Source: Acidimicrobiales bacterium
GTDB taxonomy: Bacteria; Actinomycetota; Acidimicrobiia; Acidimicrobiales; Aldehydirespiratoraceae
Direction of reading: 5' to 3'
NCBI GenBank assembly: GCA_040219515.1
Contig: JAVJSI010000010.1
Coordinates: forward strand, 62,001 to 126,000
Length of the DNA stretch: 64,000 nucleotides
The translations under genes were made by a program, and so were the position numbers. Position 1 is the first letter of the stretch. Each line of letters starts with the position of its first letter. Of the stretch, positions 45,983 to 57,607 are shown in pieces. Under the pieces are notes generated by a model that saw only the letters and a list, made by a program, of their open reading frames with translations, was not told the DNA's origin and did no database searches.

Positions 45983-46653
45983 CTCGCGGCCTCGAGTCGT
46001 TCGGAGAGGTACGCGCCCACCGCGATGCCGGCCAGCGCGCCGAGCATGATGTTGATGCCGCCCGGCGCGGCACGGGTGCCCACCGCCACCGCGGCCCCGA
46101 CGACGGCCGCCGCCAGCTTCGGGCGTGTCGTCAGCGTCGGCACCAGCAGCGCCATGAACATCAACGGCACGGTGAAGCCGATCTGCCAGCTCTCGGGGAT
46201 GTCGCCGCCGACGAGCACACCGAGGGTGGTGCCGATCCACCACGGCAACACGAACCACGCCGCAGCGCCGAGCGCGAACCAGCGCCGGTACTCGGGATCC
46301 CGTTGCGTCTCGAATTCGAGCAGCGAGATGACGGCGGTCTGGTCGGCCATCACGTAGGCGAGCCCGAACCGCCACCGCGACGAGAAGTCGCGATACGCCG
46401 GCGCGAGTGACGCGGAGTAGAGGGCGAAGCGCAGGTTGATGGTGAGCGCAGTGATGACGGCCACGAACCACGGGGCGCCGTCGTCGATGAGTTCGACGAG
46501 CGCGAGCTGGGCTGCGCCGGCGAGGATCGCGAACGAGGCGAAGATGCCGGTCGCATCGCTCAGCCCTTTGTCGACCGCGGTGGCGCCGTAGACGATGCCG
46601 AACGGCCATGCGATCAGCGACAGCGGAAAGATCCGGCGGACCCCGTTGGCCAT
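45979..46653 (-). CDS. azlC: AzlC-like branched-chain amino-acid exporter large subunit
   Basis: A 224-residue membrane protein with about six or seven hydrophobic segments. IFPLSLIAWPFGIVYGATAVDKGLS and the AQLALVELIDDGAPWFVAVITALTINLRFALYSASLAP region, with its conserved NLR, identify AzlC/YgaZ. I chose ATG 46653, which gives the family's usual N-terminus and length; a frame start at 46704 or 46773 would add 17-40 residues not typical of the family. No -10 box is obvious before it. It is the first gene of a two-gene exporter operon. Confidence 0.88.
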   Translation of the reverse strand: MANGVRRIFPLSLIAWPFGIVYGATAVDKGLSDATGIFASFAILAGAAQLALVELIDDGAPWFVAVITALTINLRFALYSASLAPAYRDFSSRWRFGLAYVMADQTAVISLLEFETQRDPEYRRWFALGAAAWFVLPWWIGTTLGVLVGGDIPESWQIGFTVPLMFMALLVPTLTTRPKLAAAVVGAAVAVGTRAAPGGINIMLGALAGIAVGAYLSERLEAAR

Positions 46654-47527: not shown

Positions 47528-48028
47528 CTAACCGCGATCGACGAGTTCGTCGACCTTCGCGGTGAGCGTCTCCTCGGTGAGCACCCCGGTGTGGACGTCG
47601 ACGACCTCGCCGGTGGCGGTCACGAAGACGGTGGTCGGCAGCCCGATCGCCTGGAAGCGACTGAGCGCCGAGCCATCGGCATCCCAGAGCGTCGGGTAGC
47701 TGATGCCGGTGGCGGCAATGATGCGTTGTCCCGCTGCGGCGGTGGCGTCCTCGGACAGACCCACGAAGTCGACGGTGTCGCCGAGGGCCCGGTGGACGGC
47801 GTCGAACGCGGGCATCTCGGCCACGCAGGGCGCACACGACTCGGCGAAGAAGTTGATGACCAAGGGGCGGCCGTCAGTGTGGCGCAGTTCCGCGGGCTGG
47901 CTGTCGAAGTCCCGGACCGCGATGGGGGTGAAGGCATCGGCCTCCGGTTCGCTCTCCCCGCAGGCCGAGGCCAGCGTGACGATCGCAAGTGCGATGGCCA
48001 CGACTCGCCGAGCGGTGGAGGAGCGCAT
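47528..48028 (-). CDS. TlpA/ResA-like thioredoxin-fold lipoprotein
   Basis: A 166-residue secreted thiol oxidoreductase. Residues 1-22 form a signal peptide ending LASA-C23 (lipobox), so the protein is membrane-tethered outside. The redox site is C65-APC-C68 order C-A-P-C in FFAESCAPCVAEMP, and the cis-Pro lies in AIGLPTTVFV. The fold is that of TlpA/ResA proteins, which reduce disulfides in exported proteins or apocytochromes. ATG 48028 is supported by a TACCGT box 7 nt upstream; the frame beyond it is antisense noise. It is divergent from the shikimate-kinase-like gene. Confidence 0.9.
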   Translation of the reverse strand: MRSSTARRVVAIALAIVTLASACGESEPEADAFTPIAVRDFDSQPAELRHTDGRPLVINFFAESCAPCVAEMPAFDAVHRALGDTVDFVGLSEDATAAAGQRIIAATGISYPTLWDADGSALSRFQAIGLPTTVFVTATGEVVDVHTGVLTEETLTAKVDELVDRG

Positions 48029-48071
48029 GGACGTGACGGTATCCGCCCCGGCCTTCTGGCACGCTGTCGCG

Positions 48072-48578
48072 ATGGTGAACCGCCGACCGCATGTGGCGAT
48101 CGTGGGGCAGATGGGGGTGGGCAAGTCAACGCTCGGCCGCGCGCTCGCGTCGGCGCTCGATCGTCGCCATGTCGACGGTGATGATGAACTCGAGGCCGGT
48201 ACCGGACGGAACGCCACCGGGATTCTCGACGAGCTGGGGCTTGCTGCGCTGCACGAGGCCGAGGCGGAGGTGTTCCTCGCCCGACTCGCAGAATCCGAGC
48301 CACTGGTGATCAGCGCGTCGGCCTCGGTGATCGAGTCGCCGATCTGCCGATCGGCGATGGCGGAGCATGCGGTGGTCGTGTGGATCGACGGGTCGCCACT
48401 CGACGTCGCGGTCCGGTCTGCTGGAGCGGCGCACCGACGTCCGCTCGACGATGCCGAGGTGATGGCCATCGACACCCGCCGGCGGCCGCTCTACGAGGCC
48501 GCGGCCGATCTGGTGGTGGACAACGACACCGGTGTCGACGTCGTGGCCGAACGGGTGAGTCCGCTTCTGGAACAGTGA
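48072..48578 (+). CDS. Shikimate kinase-like protein with degenerate substrate site
   Basis: A 168-residue P-loop kinase with the size and order of shikimate kinase. Walker A is GQMGVGKST (residues 12-20), then VDGDDELE (D35-D38), which holds Mg and the substrate. The C-terminal RRRPLYEAAADLVVDND is conserved. But the shikimate-binding FRxxE after the Asp motif is replaced (LHEAEAEVF), and the GGG loop reads SASAS. It may therefore phosphorylate another small alcohol, such as gluconate, or have lost activity. ATG 48072 fits the family start; an in-frame ATG at 48027 overlaps the divergent lipoprotein start codon. Confidence 0.8.
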   Translation: MVNRRPHVAIVGQMGVGKSTLGRALASALDRRHVDGDDELEAGTGRNATGILDELGLAALHEAEAEVFLARLAESEPLVISASASVIESPICRSAMAEHAVVVWIDGSPLDVAVRSAGAAHRRPLDDAEVMAIDTRRRPLYEAAADLVVDNDTGVDVVAERVSPLLEQ

Positions 48579-51882: not shown

Positions 51883-53931
51883 GTGCACGACGTCGACCCG
51901 CCATCCGGCCCGCCCGAACCGATCGCCCGGACGGTCCCGCACCGGTGGGGTCGCCCGAGCGGGCCGGTCGACGATCCGTACGCCTGGCTGCGCGACCGCG
52001 ACGACCCGGAGACCATCGCCTACCTGCAGGCGGAGAACGCCTACTGCGACGCCTGGTTCGCCGACCGGGCGGCACTCGTCGACGAGTTGTTCGGCGAGAT
52101 CCGGTCGCGCGTCCAGGAAGACGACGTGTCGGCACCGGTGCGCAAGGGCGAGTGGTACTACGCATCGCAGACCCACGAGGGTCAGAGCTATCCGACCCAC
52201 AGCCGTGGTCGGACGGCGGCGATGGCCACCGACGACGTCCTGCTCGATCAGAACGTCGAGGCGGACGGTCACGACTTCTTCGACCTGGCGGCATTCGAGA
52301 TCAGCCCCGATCACGGCCGCCTGGCGTGGTCGGCCGACACGGCCGGCGACGAACACTTCACCCTCCGGATCCGCGACCTCGGCCGCGGCGTCGACCTCGA
52401 TGACGAGGTGCACGACACGACATATGCCGGTGTTGCGTGGTCGGCCGACGGTCGGTTCGTGTTCTACGTGGCACCCGACGACCAGGAACGCCCGTTCCGG
52501 GTCATGCGCCACGAGGTCGGCACCGGCCAGTCCGACGACGTCGAGGTGTACCGCGACGACGACGAGCGGTTCTTCGTCGGCGTCGAGGCGACGCGCAGCG
52601 GCCAGTGGATCGTGATCGGATCGGTCAGCAAGACGTCGTCGGAGTTCGCGTTGATCCCCGCTGCGGCGCCGACATCGGCGCCGACCGTGGTCCGGCCACG
52701 GGTCGCCGACGTCGAGTACCGCGTCGACCACTGGGTCGACCGCTTCGTGATCCTCACCAACGACGACGCGGTCGACTTCCGGGTCATGGAGGCGTCGCTC
52801 GGGGACCCCGGCGAGTGGACCGAGCTCGTGCCCCACGAGCCGGGACGCCGAATCGTGACGATCGAACCGTTCGCCGGCCATCTCGCGCTGCTCGAGTGGC
52901 GCGAAGCTCAGCCGCAGGTGCGGGTGGTCACCGGCGACGGGGCCGACCGACTGCTCGACATCGACCCCGAACCCCACGACATCGAGTTCGGGCACAACGA
53001 GGAGTGGTTGACGAGCGTCGTCCGTCTCACGCACCAGTCCCTGACCTCGCCGGCGCGGGTGATCGACGTCGGGCTCGACGACGGCGACATCACCGTCGTG
53101 AAGCAGATGCCGACCCCGAACGTCGACCTCGGCGACTACACCGCGACCCGGCGATGGGCCACGGCCGCCGACGGCACCAAGGTGCCGGTCGACGTCGTCC
53201 GTCACGTCGACACCCCCGTCGACGGCACTGCACCGTGCTGCGTCTACGGCTACGGGTCCTACGAGGTCTCCCTGCCGCCGTGGTTCTCGGTCGCCCGGCT
53301 GTCGCTGCTGGACCGCGGCGTCGTGTGGGCCCTCGTGCATCCGCGCGGCGGCGGCGAACTCGGTCGGCAGTGGTACCTCGACGGCAAGCTGCTCTCGAAA
53401 CGCAACACGTTCACCGACACGCTGGCGGCGACCGACCACCTGGTCGACGTCGGCGTCGCTCATCCCGAGCGGCTGGCCATTCGCGGCGGGAGCGCGGGCG
53501 GGCTGCTGGTCGGTGCCTGCATCACGATGCGCCCCGAGCGCTACGCCGCCGCGGTGGCCGAGGTGCCGTTCGTCGACGTGACGACGACGATGAGCGACCC
53601 GACCCTTCCGCTGACGGTCACCGAGTGGGAGGAATGGGGCGACCCTCGCGACGAGCCGCACGCGTCCTACATCGCCGGGTACTCGCCCTACGACAACACG
53701 GTGGCGGCCGACTATCCGGCCGTGTACGTGACGGCCGGGCTCAACGACCCGCGGGTGAGCTTCCACGAGCCGGCGAAGTGGACCGCGAAGCTGCGCTCGG
53801 CGCGGACCAACGACGCACTCGTGCTGTTGCACACCGAGATGGGCGCCGGCCACGCCGGCCCGAGCGGGCGCTACGACGCCTGGCGTGACGAGGCCAAGGT
53901 CATCGCGTTCCTGCTGGATGCCCTCGGCTGA
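51883..53931 (+). CDS. S9 family prolyl oligopeptidase / oligopeptidase B
   Basis: A 682-residue serine peptidase. The N-terminus (HRWGRPSGPVDDPYAWLRDRDDPETIAYLQAEN) matches oligopeptidase B, the middle is a seven-bladed propeller gate, and the C-terminal alpha/beta-hydrolase holds the triad S537 (GGSAGG), D622 (GLNDPR) and H657 (GAGHAG). It cleaves short peptides, in type B after basic residues. There is no signal peptide, so it is cytoplasmic. The GTG start at 51883 was chosen because of its TAGCGT box and natural N-terminus. It is a single-gene transcription unit. Confidence 0.94.
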   Translation: MHDVDPPSGPPEPIARTVPHRWGRPSGPVDDPYAWLRDRDDPETIAYLQAENAYCDAWFADRAALVDELFGEIRSRVQEDDVSAPVRKGEWYYASQTHEGQSYPTHSRGRTAAMATDDVLLDQNVEADGHDFFDLAAFEISPDHGRLAWSADTAGDEHFTLRIRDLGRGVDLDDEVHDTTYAGVAWSADGRFVFYVAPDDQERPFRVMRHEVGTGQSDDVEVYRDDDERFFVGVEATRSGQWIVIGSVSKTSSEFALIPAAAPTSAPTVVRPRVADVEYRVDHWVDRFVILTNDDAVDFRVMEASLGDPGEWTELVPHEPGRRIVTIEPFAGHLALLEWREAQPQVRVVTGDGADRLLDIDPEPHDIEFGHNEEWLTSVVRLTHQSLTSPARVIDVGLDDGDITVVKQMPTPNVDLGDYTATRRWATAADGTKVPVDVVRHVDTPVDGTAPCCVYGYGSYEVSLPPWFSVARLSLLDRGVVWALVHPRGGGELGRQWYLDGKLLSKRNTFTDTLAATDHLVDVGVAHPERLAIRGGSAGGLLVGACITMRPERYAAAVAEVPFVDVTTTMSDPTLPLTVTEWEEWGDPRDEPHASYIAGYSPYDNTVAADYPAVYVTAGLNDPRVSFHEPAKWTAKLRSARTNDALVLLHTEMGAGHAGPSGRYDAWRDEAKVIAFLLDALG

Positions 53932-54203: not shown

Positions 54204-55310
54204 ATGATCGTCGATGACCTCACCGTGGATCGCCGGGCCTTCGAGGCGCGCACCGGTTGGCAGCTCAAGCCGGAAGGCGCGTGCAAGGGGGAGCTCTGCA
54301 TTCCGTTGGTCGAGCCGTCGGTGGGGGACACGGTCCAGCTCGATGTGATCGCGGACCAGCTCGGCCTGGCGCTCGTCCACGATCCCGACGTCGGGCTCTG
54401 GGCCACCGGTCCCGAGACCATCGGCGCTCGGGCCCTCGCCACCGCCCAGGCCCCCAACCTCACGCTCCCCGGCCTCGACGGATCCACGTTCGAGCTGGAT
54501 TCGCTGCGGGGAAAGAAGGTCGTCCTCTACGCCTGGGCACCGTATTGAGGTTGCTCCGGTGACCTGCCCGTGTGGCAGGCATTCCGCGAGCAGGTGAAGG
54601 ACAAGGGCGTCGAGATCGTCACCGTGGGCATGGATGCCGCCGGCGCGGAGGCCTGCCGTCCGTTCATCGAGGCGGCGTCGCCCGCCCACCCGTCGCTGAT
54701 CGACACCACGCACCGCATGGCCGAGCAGTTCGGCGTGATCAACATTCCCAACGCGGTGTGGATCGACGAAGAAGGGATCATCGTGCGTCCGGCCGAGCTC
54801 GCGACGGCACCGCCGTCGATCAGCAACGACCGCAAGAATCCGATGGCGGGGATGACCGAGATCCCGGCGCGGATGATGGACATCTTCACCGAAGCGATGC
54901 AGTTCGAGGCCGACCCGGCCGCCTACGAGGCCGCGCTGCGGGACTGGATCGAGCACGGTTCGGCCAGCCGCTTCGCGCTCGGCCCCGCCGAGGTCGTCGA
55001 GCGTTCACGGCCTCGCAGCGCCGACACCTCGAAGGGGCAGGCCCACTTCGAGCTGGCCTGTCACCTCGAGCAGGCGGGTGACCACGAGGCTGCCATCGGT
55101 CACTTCCGCGAGGCGCATCGGCTGGTGCCCGACAACTTCGCCTACCGCCGCCAGGCCTGGTCGCTCGAACCGGCGCCCGAGGGCCCGATCCAGCGCTTCT
55201 GGCAGGGCCCGGTCGAGGGAGCGGAAGACGACTGGCCCTACGACAGCGAGTGGCTGAGCGACGTGCGAGCGATGGGCCCGGCCAACTACTACCCCAAGGT
55301 CGATCTCTGA
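54204..55310 (+). CDS. Candidate selenoprotein: ResA/thioredoxin-like WAxxUGC redox protein with C-terminal TPR-like region
   Basis: A single 369-codon frame interrupted by one TGA at 54546-54548, which falls at codon 115 in WAPY-(TGA)-GCSGD. In thioredoxin/AhpC-TSA proteins this is where the attacking Cys stands, so the TGA is best read as selenocysteine (U115), with C117 as the resolving thiol. Before it is a 108-residue domain ending APNLTLPGLDGSTFELDSLRGKKVVLYAWAPY, the usual ResA entry; after it the fold continues to the cis-Pro in NIPNAVW (P182). A TPR-like helical pair (residues 278-312) follows. A SECIS-like hairpin lies just after the TGA. Read as ordinary stop, both halves would be nonfunctional. 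No sel gene is in the window. Confidence 0.82.
54557..54586 (+). promoter_or_regulatory. Bacterial SECIS-like stem-loop
   Basis: CCTGCC (54563-54568) pairs perfectly with GGCAGG (54574-54579) around the loop CGTGT (54569-54573). A lower stem CGG (54557-54559) / CCG (54584-54586) is separated by a TGA/CATT internal loop. The apical loop begins 20 nt after the TGA and has G at its second position, matching the known bacterial SECIS rules (loop 16-37 nt after UGA, G in the first two loop bases). Confidence 0.75.
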
Positions 55311-57607
55311 CGAGCGGGTCCCACGTCCCGCCGCTCCGGCCGGCCGAGGTCGGGGTTCGGTGTCGGCCTCGCGAAGAAGTACCCCTGCCCGAGCCGGCAA
55401 CCCAACTGCGACAGGGTCTGTGCCTGCTCCGCGGTCTCGATTCCCTCGGCGATCACGTCGAGGTCGAGCTCCGCCGCCAGGGAGAGAATCGTGCGGACGA
55501 TGGCGATGTTGTTGCTGGCGCCACCGATCTCAGCCACGAAGCTGCGGTCGATCTTCAGGCTGTCGACCGGGAGCATTCGCAGATACGTGAGCGACGAGTA
55601 TCCAGTGCCGAAGTCATCCATCGAGAGCCGCACCCCGAGTTGGCGCAGTTCGGCCAACGCGTGGAGAGACACGTCCAGGTCGTCGATGATGGCGGTCTCG
55701 GTGATCTCGAGAACCAGCGCGTCCGGCGGTAGCGAAACCGACTCGAGGATGCGGCGCACGCGGGCCGGGAACAGTTGGTCGCTCAGCTGTCGCGGGGAGA
55801 CGTTCACGCTGATGTACAGACCTGGTTGGTCGGCGTCGGTGCTGTCGCCGCTGCGCCATTCAGCGAGCTGACGACATGCGACCTCCAGGACCCAGTCGCC
55901 GATCAGACCGATCAATCCCGCTCGCTCCGCGATCGAGATGAACTCATCGGGTCCGACGGTGCCCAGCCGCCGGTTGGTCCAGCGCACCAAGGCCTCGCAC
56001 CCGACCGGGTTCTGAGCGGGAAGCGAAACGATGGGCTGGTAGACGACGGAGAGTTCGTCGCGAGCGATCGCCCCGCGGAGCTCCACCTCGATCTCGGTGC
56101 GGCGTCTGGTGCGGATTTCGAGTTCGTCGTCGAACAGCACCGCCATCAACTCGGGACGTCGTTTGCTCTCGTAGAGCGCAACGTCGGAACGACGGAACAA
56201 CTCCGTCGCCGACACGGTGTCGTCGCCGACCGCCCACGCAACGCCGACGCTCGCCGAGAGGTGGTGCTCCAACCCGTCGATCTCGACCGGTAGTTCGAGC
56301 GCCTGCGCCACCTGGGCCGCGATTGCGGTGAGGGGTTCCCTGCTCTCGACCCGGTCGCAGAGCACGGCGAACTCATCGCCACCCATCCGGGCGATGAGGC
56401 CGTCGGAACCCACGCAGGACGCCATCCGGCGCGCGACAACCCCGAGAACACCGTCCCCCGCAGGGTGACCATGGCGGTCGTTGATCTTCTTGAAATCGTC
56501 CAGGTCGATCAGCACGATCCCGACGCCGGACCCGTCCGACTGTCGCCGCTCGAACGCCTGGCGAAGTCGATCACCGAACAACACGCGGTTGGGGAGACCG
56601 GTCAGTCCGTCGTGGGTGGCCTGCACGGTCAGAAGGGTGTTCACCTCCTCCCGGTCAGCGAGTTCGCTCATCGTCGAGGCGACCACGAAGCTGGTGACGA
56701 GGGCGATCGCGAGAAAGAACTGGATCGAGATCACGTGGGGTTCGCCGTCACCGGCTGCGAACGGTCCCCAGCCGTGCGAGGTCGCGATGTTCGCGGCGAG
56801 TGAGACGATGAAACCTGCCCCGGCCGCCGACCGCAGGCCGAATCGCATCCCGGTCCACAGGAGGACGACCAGGACGAGATAGGGCACCAGGGCCGAACCC
56901 GTCGGGCCGAGGTTCGCGAAGCTGAGAGCCACAGCGGACACCATCAGGGTGCCGAGGGCGAATCGCTCACGGCCGTTGCGGGGGGTACCCCGCCGACTCG
57001 TGTACGTCATGAGGAGCGGGACCATCACGAGTACGCCCAGGCCGTCGCCGACGACCCATTCGAGCCAGGTGCTGCTCCATGACCGGTCGTAGGCGCTCAG
57101 GGTGCCCGCCGTACCGATCGTCGCGCCGACGACCGGGGCCAACACGACTGCGCCGAGAAAGAAGATCGCCGTCATGCCGTCCTGACGGGAGTCACGGGAA
57201 TTGCCGTAGCGGCGCAGGATCGTTGCGCCCAAGGCGGGCTCGACGACGTTCGCCACTGCCCACCAGATCGCCGGAACGAGCGGCATCATGCCCAGCGCGA
57301 ACGCGAGGGCGGTCGGCGACACGATGCCGGCGATCACCCATCCCCACCGGCGCACCGGAACGACCAGCATTGCCACGACCGCCAACCCCGCCGCCGGCCA
57401 GAATCCCGCGGACGTGGTGGTGACGTCACCCCGCCAGACGACCGTCAGGCTGAGCACGATGCACAACGCCCCGACCACAGCGGAGATACGCAGGCCCGAG
57501 GTCGAGGCGATCGTGTCGCCATCGAGGGACCCGCCGCGCAGCGTACGAATCGTCCATGGCGCGGGCGACGGCGGGTACTCCGCTCCCGGGAACGATTCAC
57601 TCTTCAT
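55289..57607 (-). CDS. MASE1-GGDEF-EAL c-di-GMP enzyme
   Basis: A 772-residue membrane protein. A MASE1-like sensor with about eight to nine hydrophobic segments (residues 40-310) is followed by GGDEF (motif intact at 409-413) and EAL (538-540, with ITETAIIDD, DDFGTGYSSL, KIDRSF and AEGIET). The I-site before GGDEF is missing. With both motifs intact it could make or break c-di-GMP; the complete EAL set suggests phosphodiesterase activity is possible. Its 3' end overlaps the tail of the selenoprotein gene by 22 bp (convergent). ATG 57607 gives the natural N-terminus. The gap to the next gene holds nothing visible. Confidence 0.92.
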   Translation of the reverse strand: MKSESFPGAEYPPSPAPWTIRTLRGGSLDGDTIASTSGLRISAVVGALCIVLSLTVVWRGDVTTTSAGFWPAAGLAVVAMLVVPVRRWGWVIAGIVSPTALAFALGMMPLVPAIWWAVANVVEPALGATILRRYGNSRDSRQDGMTAIFFLGAVVLAPVVGATIGTAGTLSAYDRSWSSTWLEWVVGDGLGVLVMVPLLMTYTSRRGTPRNGRERFALGTLMVSAVALSFANLGPTGSALVPYLVLVVLLWTGMRFGLRSAAGAGFIVSLAANIATSHGWGPFAAGDGEPHVISIQFFLAIALVTSFVVASTMSELADREEVNTLLTVQATHDGLTGLPNRVLFGDRLRQAFERRQSDGSGVGIVLIDLDDFKKINDRHGHPAGDGVLGVVARRMASCVGSDGLIARMGGDEFAVLCDRVESREPLTAIAAQVAQALELPVEIDGLEHHLSASVGVAWAVGDDTVSATELFRRSDVALYESKRRPELMAVLFDDELEIRTRRRTEIEVELRGAIARDELSVVYQPIVSLPAQNPVGCEALVRWTNRRLGTVGPDEFISIAERAGLIGLIGDWVLEVACRQLAEWRSGDSTDADQPGLYISVNVSPRQLSDQLFPARVRRILESVSLPPDALVLEITETAIIDDLDVSLHALAELRQLGVRLSMDDFGTGYSSLTYLRMLPVDSLKIDRSFVAEIGGASNNIAIVRTILSLAAELDLDVIAEGIETAEQAQTLSQLGCRLGQGYFFARPTPNPDLGRPERRDVGPARQRSTLG

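What the first reader, a model, noticed from the sequence alone, without database searches (positions are those of the whole stretch)
54204..55310. In-frame TGA at the catalytic position: a WAxxUGC selenoprotein
One continuous frame has a single TGA, at codon 115, exactly where a ResA/thioredoxin-like protein has its attacking Cys (WAPY-TGA-GC). The downstream 253 codons stay in frame and code for the rest of the fold, including the cis-Pro. An ordinary stop would leave a 114-residue stub and an unstartable tail. WAxxUGC is a known motif for selenocysteine-containing ResA-like proteins, so the family is not new. It would be easy to mis-annotate as two genes or a pseudogene, and the N-terminal extra domain and TPR-like tail are worth study.
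Basis: partly seen in the sequence, partly recalled or inferred. Interest (0 to 1): 0.9.

Follow-up and report, generated by a model that had tools for sequence, protein, structure and literature searches.

The report
Selenium-using thioredoxin-like enzyme, known family
By all the sequence evidence, this bacterial gene reads an in-frame stop codon (TGA) as the amino acid selenocysteine at the active site of a thioredoxin-like enzyme; it is a solid new example of an already catalogued selenoprotein family whose function has not been worked out.

Summary
Frame 54204-55310 is open except for one TGA at codon 115; read through, it scores 499 bits against NCBIfam NF041054 'ResA-like WAxxUGC motif-containing protein' (cut-off 300). 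The genome has selA, selB, selD and a tRNA-Sec with anticodon TCA. Of 160 family rows read at this codon (the window's included), 65 have TGA and 95 Cys codons. A bacterial SECIS hairpin follows 20 nt later: its inner five pairs are kept in 63 of 65 TGA rows and 35 of 95 Cys rows, with compensatory changes that alter the protein. selA is present in 25 of 25 TGA-type genomes tested and 2 of 14 Cys-type genomes of the order. Added here: the active site is a ResA CxxC shortened by one residue to UxC; an N-terminal CxxxxC pair is nearly universal; Sec and Cys have swapped repeatedly. Function is untested. One detail was wrong: the tail is startable (GTG 54570).

The parts
54204..55310 (+). Selenoprotein gene, NF041054 WAxxUGC_long (368 aa with U115; stop TGA 55308-55310)
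54204..54428 (+). N-terminal domain (about residues 1-75), no Pfam match; holds Cys27 (54282-54284) and Cys32 (54297-54299), a CxxxxC seen in every counted family row long enough to show it except L041, a short form without the domain
54444..54788 (+). ResA/TlpA-like thioredoxin-fold domain (residues 81-195), with Pro182 at the cis-Pro position (54747-54749)
54546..54548 (+). In-frame TGA = selenocysteine 115, aligned with the first Cys of the ResA CxxC
54552..54554 (+). Cys117, aligned with the second Cys of the ResA CxxC after a one-residue deletion; proposed resolving partner of Sec115
   Evidence: 'resolving' is inferred
54563..54579 (+). bSECIS apical hairpin: CCUGCC-CGUGU-GGCAGG, loop 54569-54573, 20 nt between UGA and loop
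55038..55136 (+). Single TPR-like motif (residues 279-311) in the helical C-terminal tail; below Pfam cut-off

Best explanation
54204-55310 is one gene for a 368-residue selenoprotein of the NF041054 (WAxxUGC) redoxin family. SHOWN by sequence: UGA 115 is followed 20 nt later by a hairpin that meets the bacterial SECIS rules; the genome encodes SelA, SelB, SelD and tRNA-Sec; codon 115 is UGA or Cys in relatives; the thioredoxin-fold domain is ResA-like, with its CxxC shortened to U-G-C. INFERRED from the known pathway: SelB carrying Sec-tRNA-Sec binds the hairpin and inserts Sec at UGA 115. INFERRED, about 0.4: the enzyme is a cytosolic thiol-disulfide (or peroxide/organic-oxidant) reductase or isomerase. 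Sec115 would be the nucleophile and Cys117 would resolve it as a strained UxC selenenylsulfide, with Cys27/Cys32 of the N-terminal domain as a possible second redox pair or relay. The confidence given is for the selenoprotein part.
For: NF041054 499.3 bits, cut-off 300, full length. selB 276 bits, over its cut-off; tRNA-Sec 64 bits, gathering score 47, ARAGORN anticodon TCA; selA 393 bits; selD 362 bits with its own in-frame TGA in HGAGUGCK. In the 14 control genomes these models pass their cut-offs in 2 (selB), 5 (tRNA-Sec), 1 (selA) and 2 (selD), so the tRNA model alone is the least specific. Codon 115: 65 TGA, 81 TGC, 14 TGT. SECIS inner five pairs 63/65 TGA rows vs 35/95 Cys rows (Fisher 2e-16, not corrected for kinship); distinct segments 31/33 vs 29/78; codon-resampling null 28.2 +/- 4.0 or 21.3 +/- 3.7 of 65. 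Compensatory changes that alter the protein: L037 (Val GTC...Asp GAC) and L180 (Leu CTC...Glu GAG). Loop bases 21-24 pair in 62/65 (C-G, G-C or A-U) vs 35/95. selA: 25/25 TGA-type genomes, 2/14 Cys-type genomes of the order. ResA entries are the eight best structural matches. One-residue gap between the two Cys in all four printed alignments. CxxxxC upstream in 63 of 65 TGA rows, the other two being a truncated contig (L027) and L041, which lacks the domain; and in 95 of 95 Cys rows (its regex missed L097, whose printed row has the pair).
Against: No protein-level evidence of Sec. The hairpin of the window alone is not exceptionally stable (z -0.80; 41 of 200 shuffles fold as well), and for the genome's second family gene the lowest-energy fold of the 45 bases from TGA is another structure, although its bases can form the hairpin; the SECIS case rests on comparison. 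The L-P-x-W-Q residues over the hairpin are also kept in many Cys rows (46 of 95); restricted to those the contrast is weaker though still clear (59/61 vs 32/46, p 1.6e-4). Nothing tests the reaction. Among the 25 largest neighbour clusters printed, none ties a real neighbour to the window's genes (only antisense ORFs of the gene itself joined). selA is also present in 8 of 12 order genomes with no family match at E <= 1e-30 and in 10 of 20 named Cys-form genomes, so it looks necessary, not specific.
Confidence: 0.93

Rival explanations
1. TGA 115 is a true stop: a 114-residue N-terminal protein and a separately started 246-aa tail (GTG 54570), i.e. a pseudogene or two genes.
For: Both parts are mechanical ORFs with usable starts.
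Against: The split falls inside a domain at the catalytic codon; 70 of 70 listed over-cut-off relatives in the order have one TGA (my count; position read in the 33 fetched); Cys homologues are continuous; the hairpin is far better kept with TGA than with Cys; the Sec machinery is present.
Confidence: 0.02
2. TGA is read as another amino acid (Trp, Cys or Gly) by a changed code or a suppressor, not as Sec.
For: Reassigned TGA is known in other bacteria (recalled).
Against: This gene's own stop is TGA; the non-TGA rows all have Cys codons there (95 of 95, though the motif search required U or C); selA/selB/selD and tRNA-Sec are present and the hairpin goes with TGA forms.
Confidence: 0.02
3. 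Sequencing or assembly error turned TGC/TGT into TGA.
For: None seen; the assembly is 19 contigs with 4.96% estimated contamination. No reads were available.
Against: A second gene of the family in the same genome has TGA at the same place, as do 64 further rows, from other assemblies.
Confidence: 0.01
4. It is a selenoprotein, but the active partner of Sec115 is not Cys117: the enzyme is a one-Sec peroxidase, with Cys27/Cys32 (or an outside thiol) as resolver.
For: CxxxxC is nearly as constant as the UxC; Redoxin/AhpC-TSA Pfam models are the best hits.
Against: The peroxiredoxin PxxxTxxC context is absent at U115 (WAPYUGC); ResA entries are the top structural matches and Cys117 aligns with their second Cys. 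The Cys27-Sec115 distance was not measured.
Confidence: 0.3

Closest known systems
NCBIfam NF041054 WAxxUGC_long, 'ResA-like WAxxUGC motif-containing protein'
   Same: Full-length match at 499 bits, cut-off 300; same motif.
   Different: Nothing that excludes membership; the model's name states no function.
'Prx-like (UGC-containing)' selenoprotein of the Global Ocean Sampling study (PMC2398784), later listed as 'UGC-containing Prx-like protein' (PMC9312934) and 'UGC-containing TlpA disulfide reductase family protein' (PMC13188914)
   Same: pfam00578 (or cd02966) domain and UGC motif, as printed in the passages seen.
   Different: Their sequences were not compared here, so identity with NF041054 is inferred.
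ResA / TlpA thiol-disulfide oxidoreductases
   Same: Thioredoxin fold; ResA entries are the top eight Foldseek hits (1su9, E 8.9e-11, TM 0.76 by target length); cis-Pro position kept.
   Different: CxxC shortened to UxC; extra N-terminal and C-terminal parts; no hydrophobic N-terminal segment by eye in the window protein.
Prx-like thiol:disulfide oxidoreductase (UxxC/UxxU selenoproteins)
   Same: Sec in an AhpC-TSA fold (table passage).
   Different: UxxC spacing instead of UxC; sequences not compared.

Membership tests
NF041054 WAxxUGC_long | Profile score over curated cut-off (300 bits) across the whole protein | tested here: met
   499.3 bits, 1-367 vs 1-353/354
NF041054 WAxxUGC_long | W-A-x-x-U-G-C motif | tested here: met
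   WAPYUGC, residues 111-117
Bacterial selenoprotein | In-frame TGA aligned with Cys of homologues | tested here: met
   65 TGA and 95 Cys rows at the codon
Bacterial selenoprotein | SelA, SelB, SelD and tRNA-Sec in the genome | tested here: met
Bacterial selenoprotein | Selenium in the purified protein | not testable with these tools
   needs 75Se labelling or mass spectrometry
bSECIS model (rules in legend of Fig. 2, PMC13188914) | Apical loop 3-9 nt, stem 4-16 bp, G in the first two loop positions, 16-37 nt from UGA, MFE <= -7.5 kcal/mol | tested here: met
   Loop CGUGU (5 nt), 6-bp stem, G at loop position 2, 20 nt spacing; -16 kcal/mol for the 43-nt stretch, the hairpin alone was not folded
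ResA/TlpA | Thioredoxin fold close to solved ResA | tested here: met
ResA/TlpA | CxxC active site | tested here: not met
   One-residue deletion gives UxC; all 160 counted family rows have U/C-x-C, but the search motif required this
ResA/TlpA | Exported or membrane-anchored, cytochrome c maturation | tested here: inconclusive
   N-terminus MIVDDLTVDRRAF shows no hydrophobic segment by eye; no predictor was run; cytochrome role not tested
Peroxiredoxin | PxxxTxxC/U catalytic motif | tested here: not met
   Sequence before U115 is LYAWAPY; the motif is from a PMC13188914 passage
Copper amine oxidase N-like domain (N-terminal part) | Profile or fold match to that domain | tested here: inconclusive
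   Resemblance recalled from sequence pattern only; Pfam 0 of 16 members, none in 8 longer relatives, no usable PDB fold match

The most novel reading that the evidence does not exclude
A natural, cytosolic, two-centre redox enzyme that works through a strained 'UxC' selenenylsulfide: the ResA CxxC has lost one residue, giving the CGC spacing that is known as a disulfide-isomerase mimic, and Sec speeds it up. The CxxxxC pair in an N-terminal domain for which no Pfam or PDB match was found here would form a second redox centre feeding it. The Sec/Cys exchange would be a repeated evolutionary tuning of the same enzyme.
Probability: 0.3. Interest if true: 0.6.

Novelty: new member of a known kind. 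Interest (0 to 1): 0.38.

Why it matters
It is a clear case where an ordinary gene caller could split or truncate a gene, and where a hairpin, its co-evolving bases and the Cys/Sec pairs settle the question. It also points to an enzyme family of untested function, frequent in this order (55 of 298 sampled genomes over cut-off) and reaching other phyla in Cys form, with an unusual UxC active site and a nearly universal N-terminal cysteine pair. No functional study of it turned up in the open-access searches made here.

Tried and rejected
Neighbourhood: clustering of 1139 ORFs around the family genes, of which the 25 largest clusters were printed, gave synteny within Nocardioides or Frankia but no neighbour shared with the window's genes. 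The flanking ORFs (51883-53931 +, by its look a prolyl oligopeptidase; 55289-57607 -, by its look a GGDEF/EAL protein) give no functional lead; these names are my reading, not a search.

N-terminal domain: Pfam, PDB sequences (best E 0.052), Foldseek (none at E <= 0.001) and VIA-align (best Z 2.6) gave nothing usable. A weak or missing match does not show a new fold.

Considered and dropped: that U115 replaces Cys while the second ResA Cys became Ser118. The residue alignment shows a one-residue gap instead, with Cys117 against the second Cys.

Single-sequence folding of the SECIS is not decisive: z -0.80 for the window, and a different lowest-energy fold for the genome's second family gene. 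I used comparison instead. Literature: one search showed no paper holding both 'selenoprotein' and 'WAxxUGC'; none of the 10 papers listed (of 49) held NF041054 or WAxxUGC; one search found no paper holding Acidimicrobiia, selenocysteine and selenoprotein together.

Rows dropped or biased: partial loci L032, L033 and L036 lack the site and were not counted; L206 (G237) gave no motif match; L042-L049 are ordinary CxxC redoxins and were used only. The motif search required U/C-x-C, so the constancy of Cys117 is partly by construction. The genome-contig scan used a CGC pattern, so it could only find Cys forms, and its 80 loci are a capped list. Loci for searches were picked by hand from the and 32 lists: 20 TGA-type places and 15 others (13 listed without an internal stop, plus L206 and L207). 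The handles were also chosen by hand, mostly for completeness of 90% or more. Of its 25 TGA-type genomes, 23 are of the order and 2 (G040, G146) only of the phylum; the TGA position was read in 20 of the 25, the other 5 (G427, G528, G500, G516, G564) rest on the '1 TGA'. Some Cys rows are the same record reached twice (e.g. L101 and L198), so distinct-segment counts are also given. The tree used 159 of 160 rows (one TGA row with under 70 downstream residues was left out).

Full report
1. The observation. The frame from ATG 54204 to TGA 55308-55310 contains one other stop, TGA at 54546-54548, codon 115, in the context WAPY-TGA-GC. Open frames are common in this GC-rich DNA on both strands, so openness alone proves little. 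The profile evidence does more: NCBIfam NF041054 'ResA-like WAxxUGC motif-containing protein' matches residues 1-367 with 499.3 bits (cut-off 300), straight through the TGA. Pfam gives AhpC-TSA/Redoxin at 81-194 and a sub-threshold TPR at 279-311. The claim of an unstartable tail is wrong: GTG 54570 opens 246 aa.

2. Machinery. The genome (4.02 Mb, 19 contigs) holds selB over cut-off at C18:156659, selA at C18:155490, a tRNA-Sec at C18:131974-132065 (ARAGORN anticodon TCA) and selD at C16:95480. Of 14 control genomes, 2, 1, 5 and 2 pass the cut-offs of selB, selA, tRNA-Sec and selD. SelD here has an in-frame TGA of its own, in HGAGUGCK. The genome has a second, more distant family gene at C3:7054-7632 (171.8 bits, under the cut-off), also with a single TGA, in FASW-TGA-GC.

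3. Relatives. In the phylum search 13 of 396 genomes are over the family cut-off; 280 of 396 (and 11 of 14 controls) have some match at E <= 0.001, mostly weaker redoxin matches that say nothing about this family. In the order search 55 of 298 are over the cut-off, and all 70 over-cut-off matches listed have exactly one TGA (my count of the table; its place was read in the 33 fetched). A scan of named genomes returned 80 loci with Cys at the site: Frankia spp. (48-50% identity over 1-366), a Verrucomicrobiaceae MAG, Patulibacter, Myxococcus, Nocardioides, planctomycete, gammaproteobacterial and Acidimicrobiia genomes. Together, 160 rows could be read at codon 115: 65 TGA, 81 TGC, 14 TGT (the window's own gene, as L025, is one of the 65). 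On a quick tree of 159 rows the label needs at least 12 changes, 5 of them forced by well-supported branches. Sec and Cys have therefore replaced each other repeatedly.

4. SECIS. Counting bases from the first after TGA, pairs 15-31, 16-30, 17-29, 18-28, 19-27 and 20-26 close a five-base loop at 21-25 (window 54563-54579, CCUGCC-CGUGU-GGCAGG). RNA folding of the window stretch gives this hairpin, but with z only -0.80. For the second family gene of this genome the lowest-energy fold of the first 45 bases is a different structure. Comparison is strong. All six pairs are kept in 62 of 65 TGA rows and 26 of 95 Cys rows; the inner five in 63 of 65 and 35 of 95. Over distinct segments it is 31 of 33 and 29 of 78. 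Random synonymous codons with the same proteins give 28.2 +/- 4.0 or 21.3 +/- 3.7 of 65, depending on the codon usage taken. Sliding the 3' arm by 1-3 bases gives 0, or 15 for -3, of 65. Two TGA forms changed the protein and kept the helix: L037 (Val GTC with Asp GAC) and L180 (Leu CTC with Glu GAG). Bases 21 and 24 of the loop also covary in TGA forms (47 C-G, 13 G-C, 2 A-U; 62 of 65 paired, against 35 of 95). The hairpin meets each rule of the bacterial SECIS model as printed in the legend of PMC13188914 Fig. 2 (passage), with the energy taken for the 43-nt stretch. Against: with only LPxWQ members the contrast falls to 59 of 61 vs 32 of 46 (p 1.6e-4). The Fisher values ignore kinship.

5. 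Machinery and codon go together. Of genomes picked by hand, mostly for high completeness, 25 of 25 with the TGA form have selA (23 of the order, 2 of the phylum; the TGA place was read in 20). In one of them, G546, selA is in two pieces below the cut-off. In the same order 2 of 14 with the Cys form, all 14 read, have it over cut-off (G582 has only a weak E 6e-4 hit). Eight of 12 order genomes without a match at E <= 1e-30, and 10 of 20 named Cys-form genomes, also have selA. selA thus looks needed by the TGA form but is not specific to it.

6. Anatomy. AlphaFold2 with 16 family members (C placed for U) gives pLDDT 90.1, pTM 0.90; Foldseek's eight best matches are ResA (1su9, E 8.9e-11). The four printed residue alignments (three ResA, one thioredoxin-family protein) place one gap between U115 and Cys117. 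The eight CxxC redoxins checked read C-x-x-C-x-x-E-[MF]-P, whereas nearly all family rows read U/C-G-C-x-x-x-L and mostly P next. The redox pair is therefore Sec115-Gly-Cys117, a CxxC shortened by one residue, in both Sec and Cys forms. [quoted passage not shown] the original was not read. The N-terminal domain (pLDDT 84 alone) holds Cys27-x4-Cys32. The pair is present in 63 of 65 TGA rows (the others: L027, cut by its contig's end, and L041, a short UTC form without the domain) and in 95 of 95 Cys rows (L097 failed the regex but has the pair in the printed row). No known fold or family was found for this domain.

7. Function. Established knowledge of ResA-type proteins and of Sec enzymes makes thiol-disulfide or peroxide chemistry by Sec115 the likely role. 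The UxC pairing, the role of Cys27/Cys32 and the substrate are inference. Three relatives (L077, a Pirellulales MAG; L079 and L083, MAGs titled only 'bacterium') have a hydrophobic, signal-like stretch near the start, while the window protein does not (by eye), so the location may differ across the family.

8. Known or new. The family is catalogued: NF041054, and a 'Prx-like (UGC-containing)' selenoprotein appears in the 2008 Global Ocean Sampling study (PMC2398784, passages) and in two reviews (PMC9312934 and PMC13188914, passages). That these are the same family as NF041054 was not tested by sequence. The paper searches made here showed no experimental work on it; the library is open-access only and the lists are capped. 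The window's order is probably Acidimicrobiales: G636 ('same order') has a contig of the same length, 4,938,963, as Aquihabitans sp. G128. Verdict: a selenoprotein by every comparative test run here, new member of a known kind.

Noticed in passing
window 47528-48475 (-): Another TlpA/ResA-like protein with an ordinary CxxC (ESCAPCVAEMP) lies about 6 kb upstream of the selenoprotein gene; the name is my reading of the sequence.
   Followed up: partly
L018 (G000:C16:95480-96403, -): SelD of the same genome is itself a selenoprotein by sequence: TGA in HGAGUGCK.
   Followed up: partly
L050 (G000:C3:7054-7632, -): A second, diverged WAxxUGC-type gene (FASW-TGA-GC) in the same genome; similar lower-scoring matches with one TGA are frequent in the order list.
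   Followed up: partly
L041 (1483-2172 +): Short form with UTC instead of UGC, no N-terminal CxxxxC domain but a family-like tail.
   Followed up: no
L032/L065 and L206 (G237:C1): Family copies that look broken: one split over frames, one with TGA plus TAG. Described only, not mended.
   Followed up: no
window 46215-46306 (-): ARAGORN calls a tRNA-Ala with anticodon CGC, 92 bases long, which is long for tRNA-Ala.
   Followed up: no
window 54569-54573 (SECIS loop, bases 21-25 after TGA): Loop bases 21 and 24 covary (C-G, G-C, A-U) in TGA rows, 62 of 65 paired against 35 of 95 Cys rows, which suggests an inner loop pair with a bulged base 25.
   Followed up: partly
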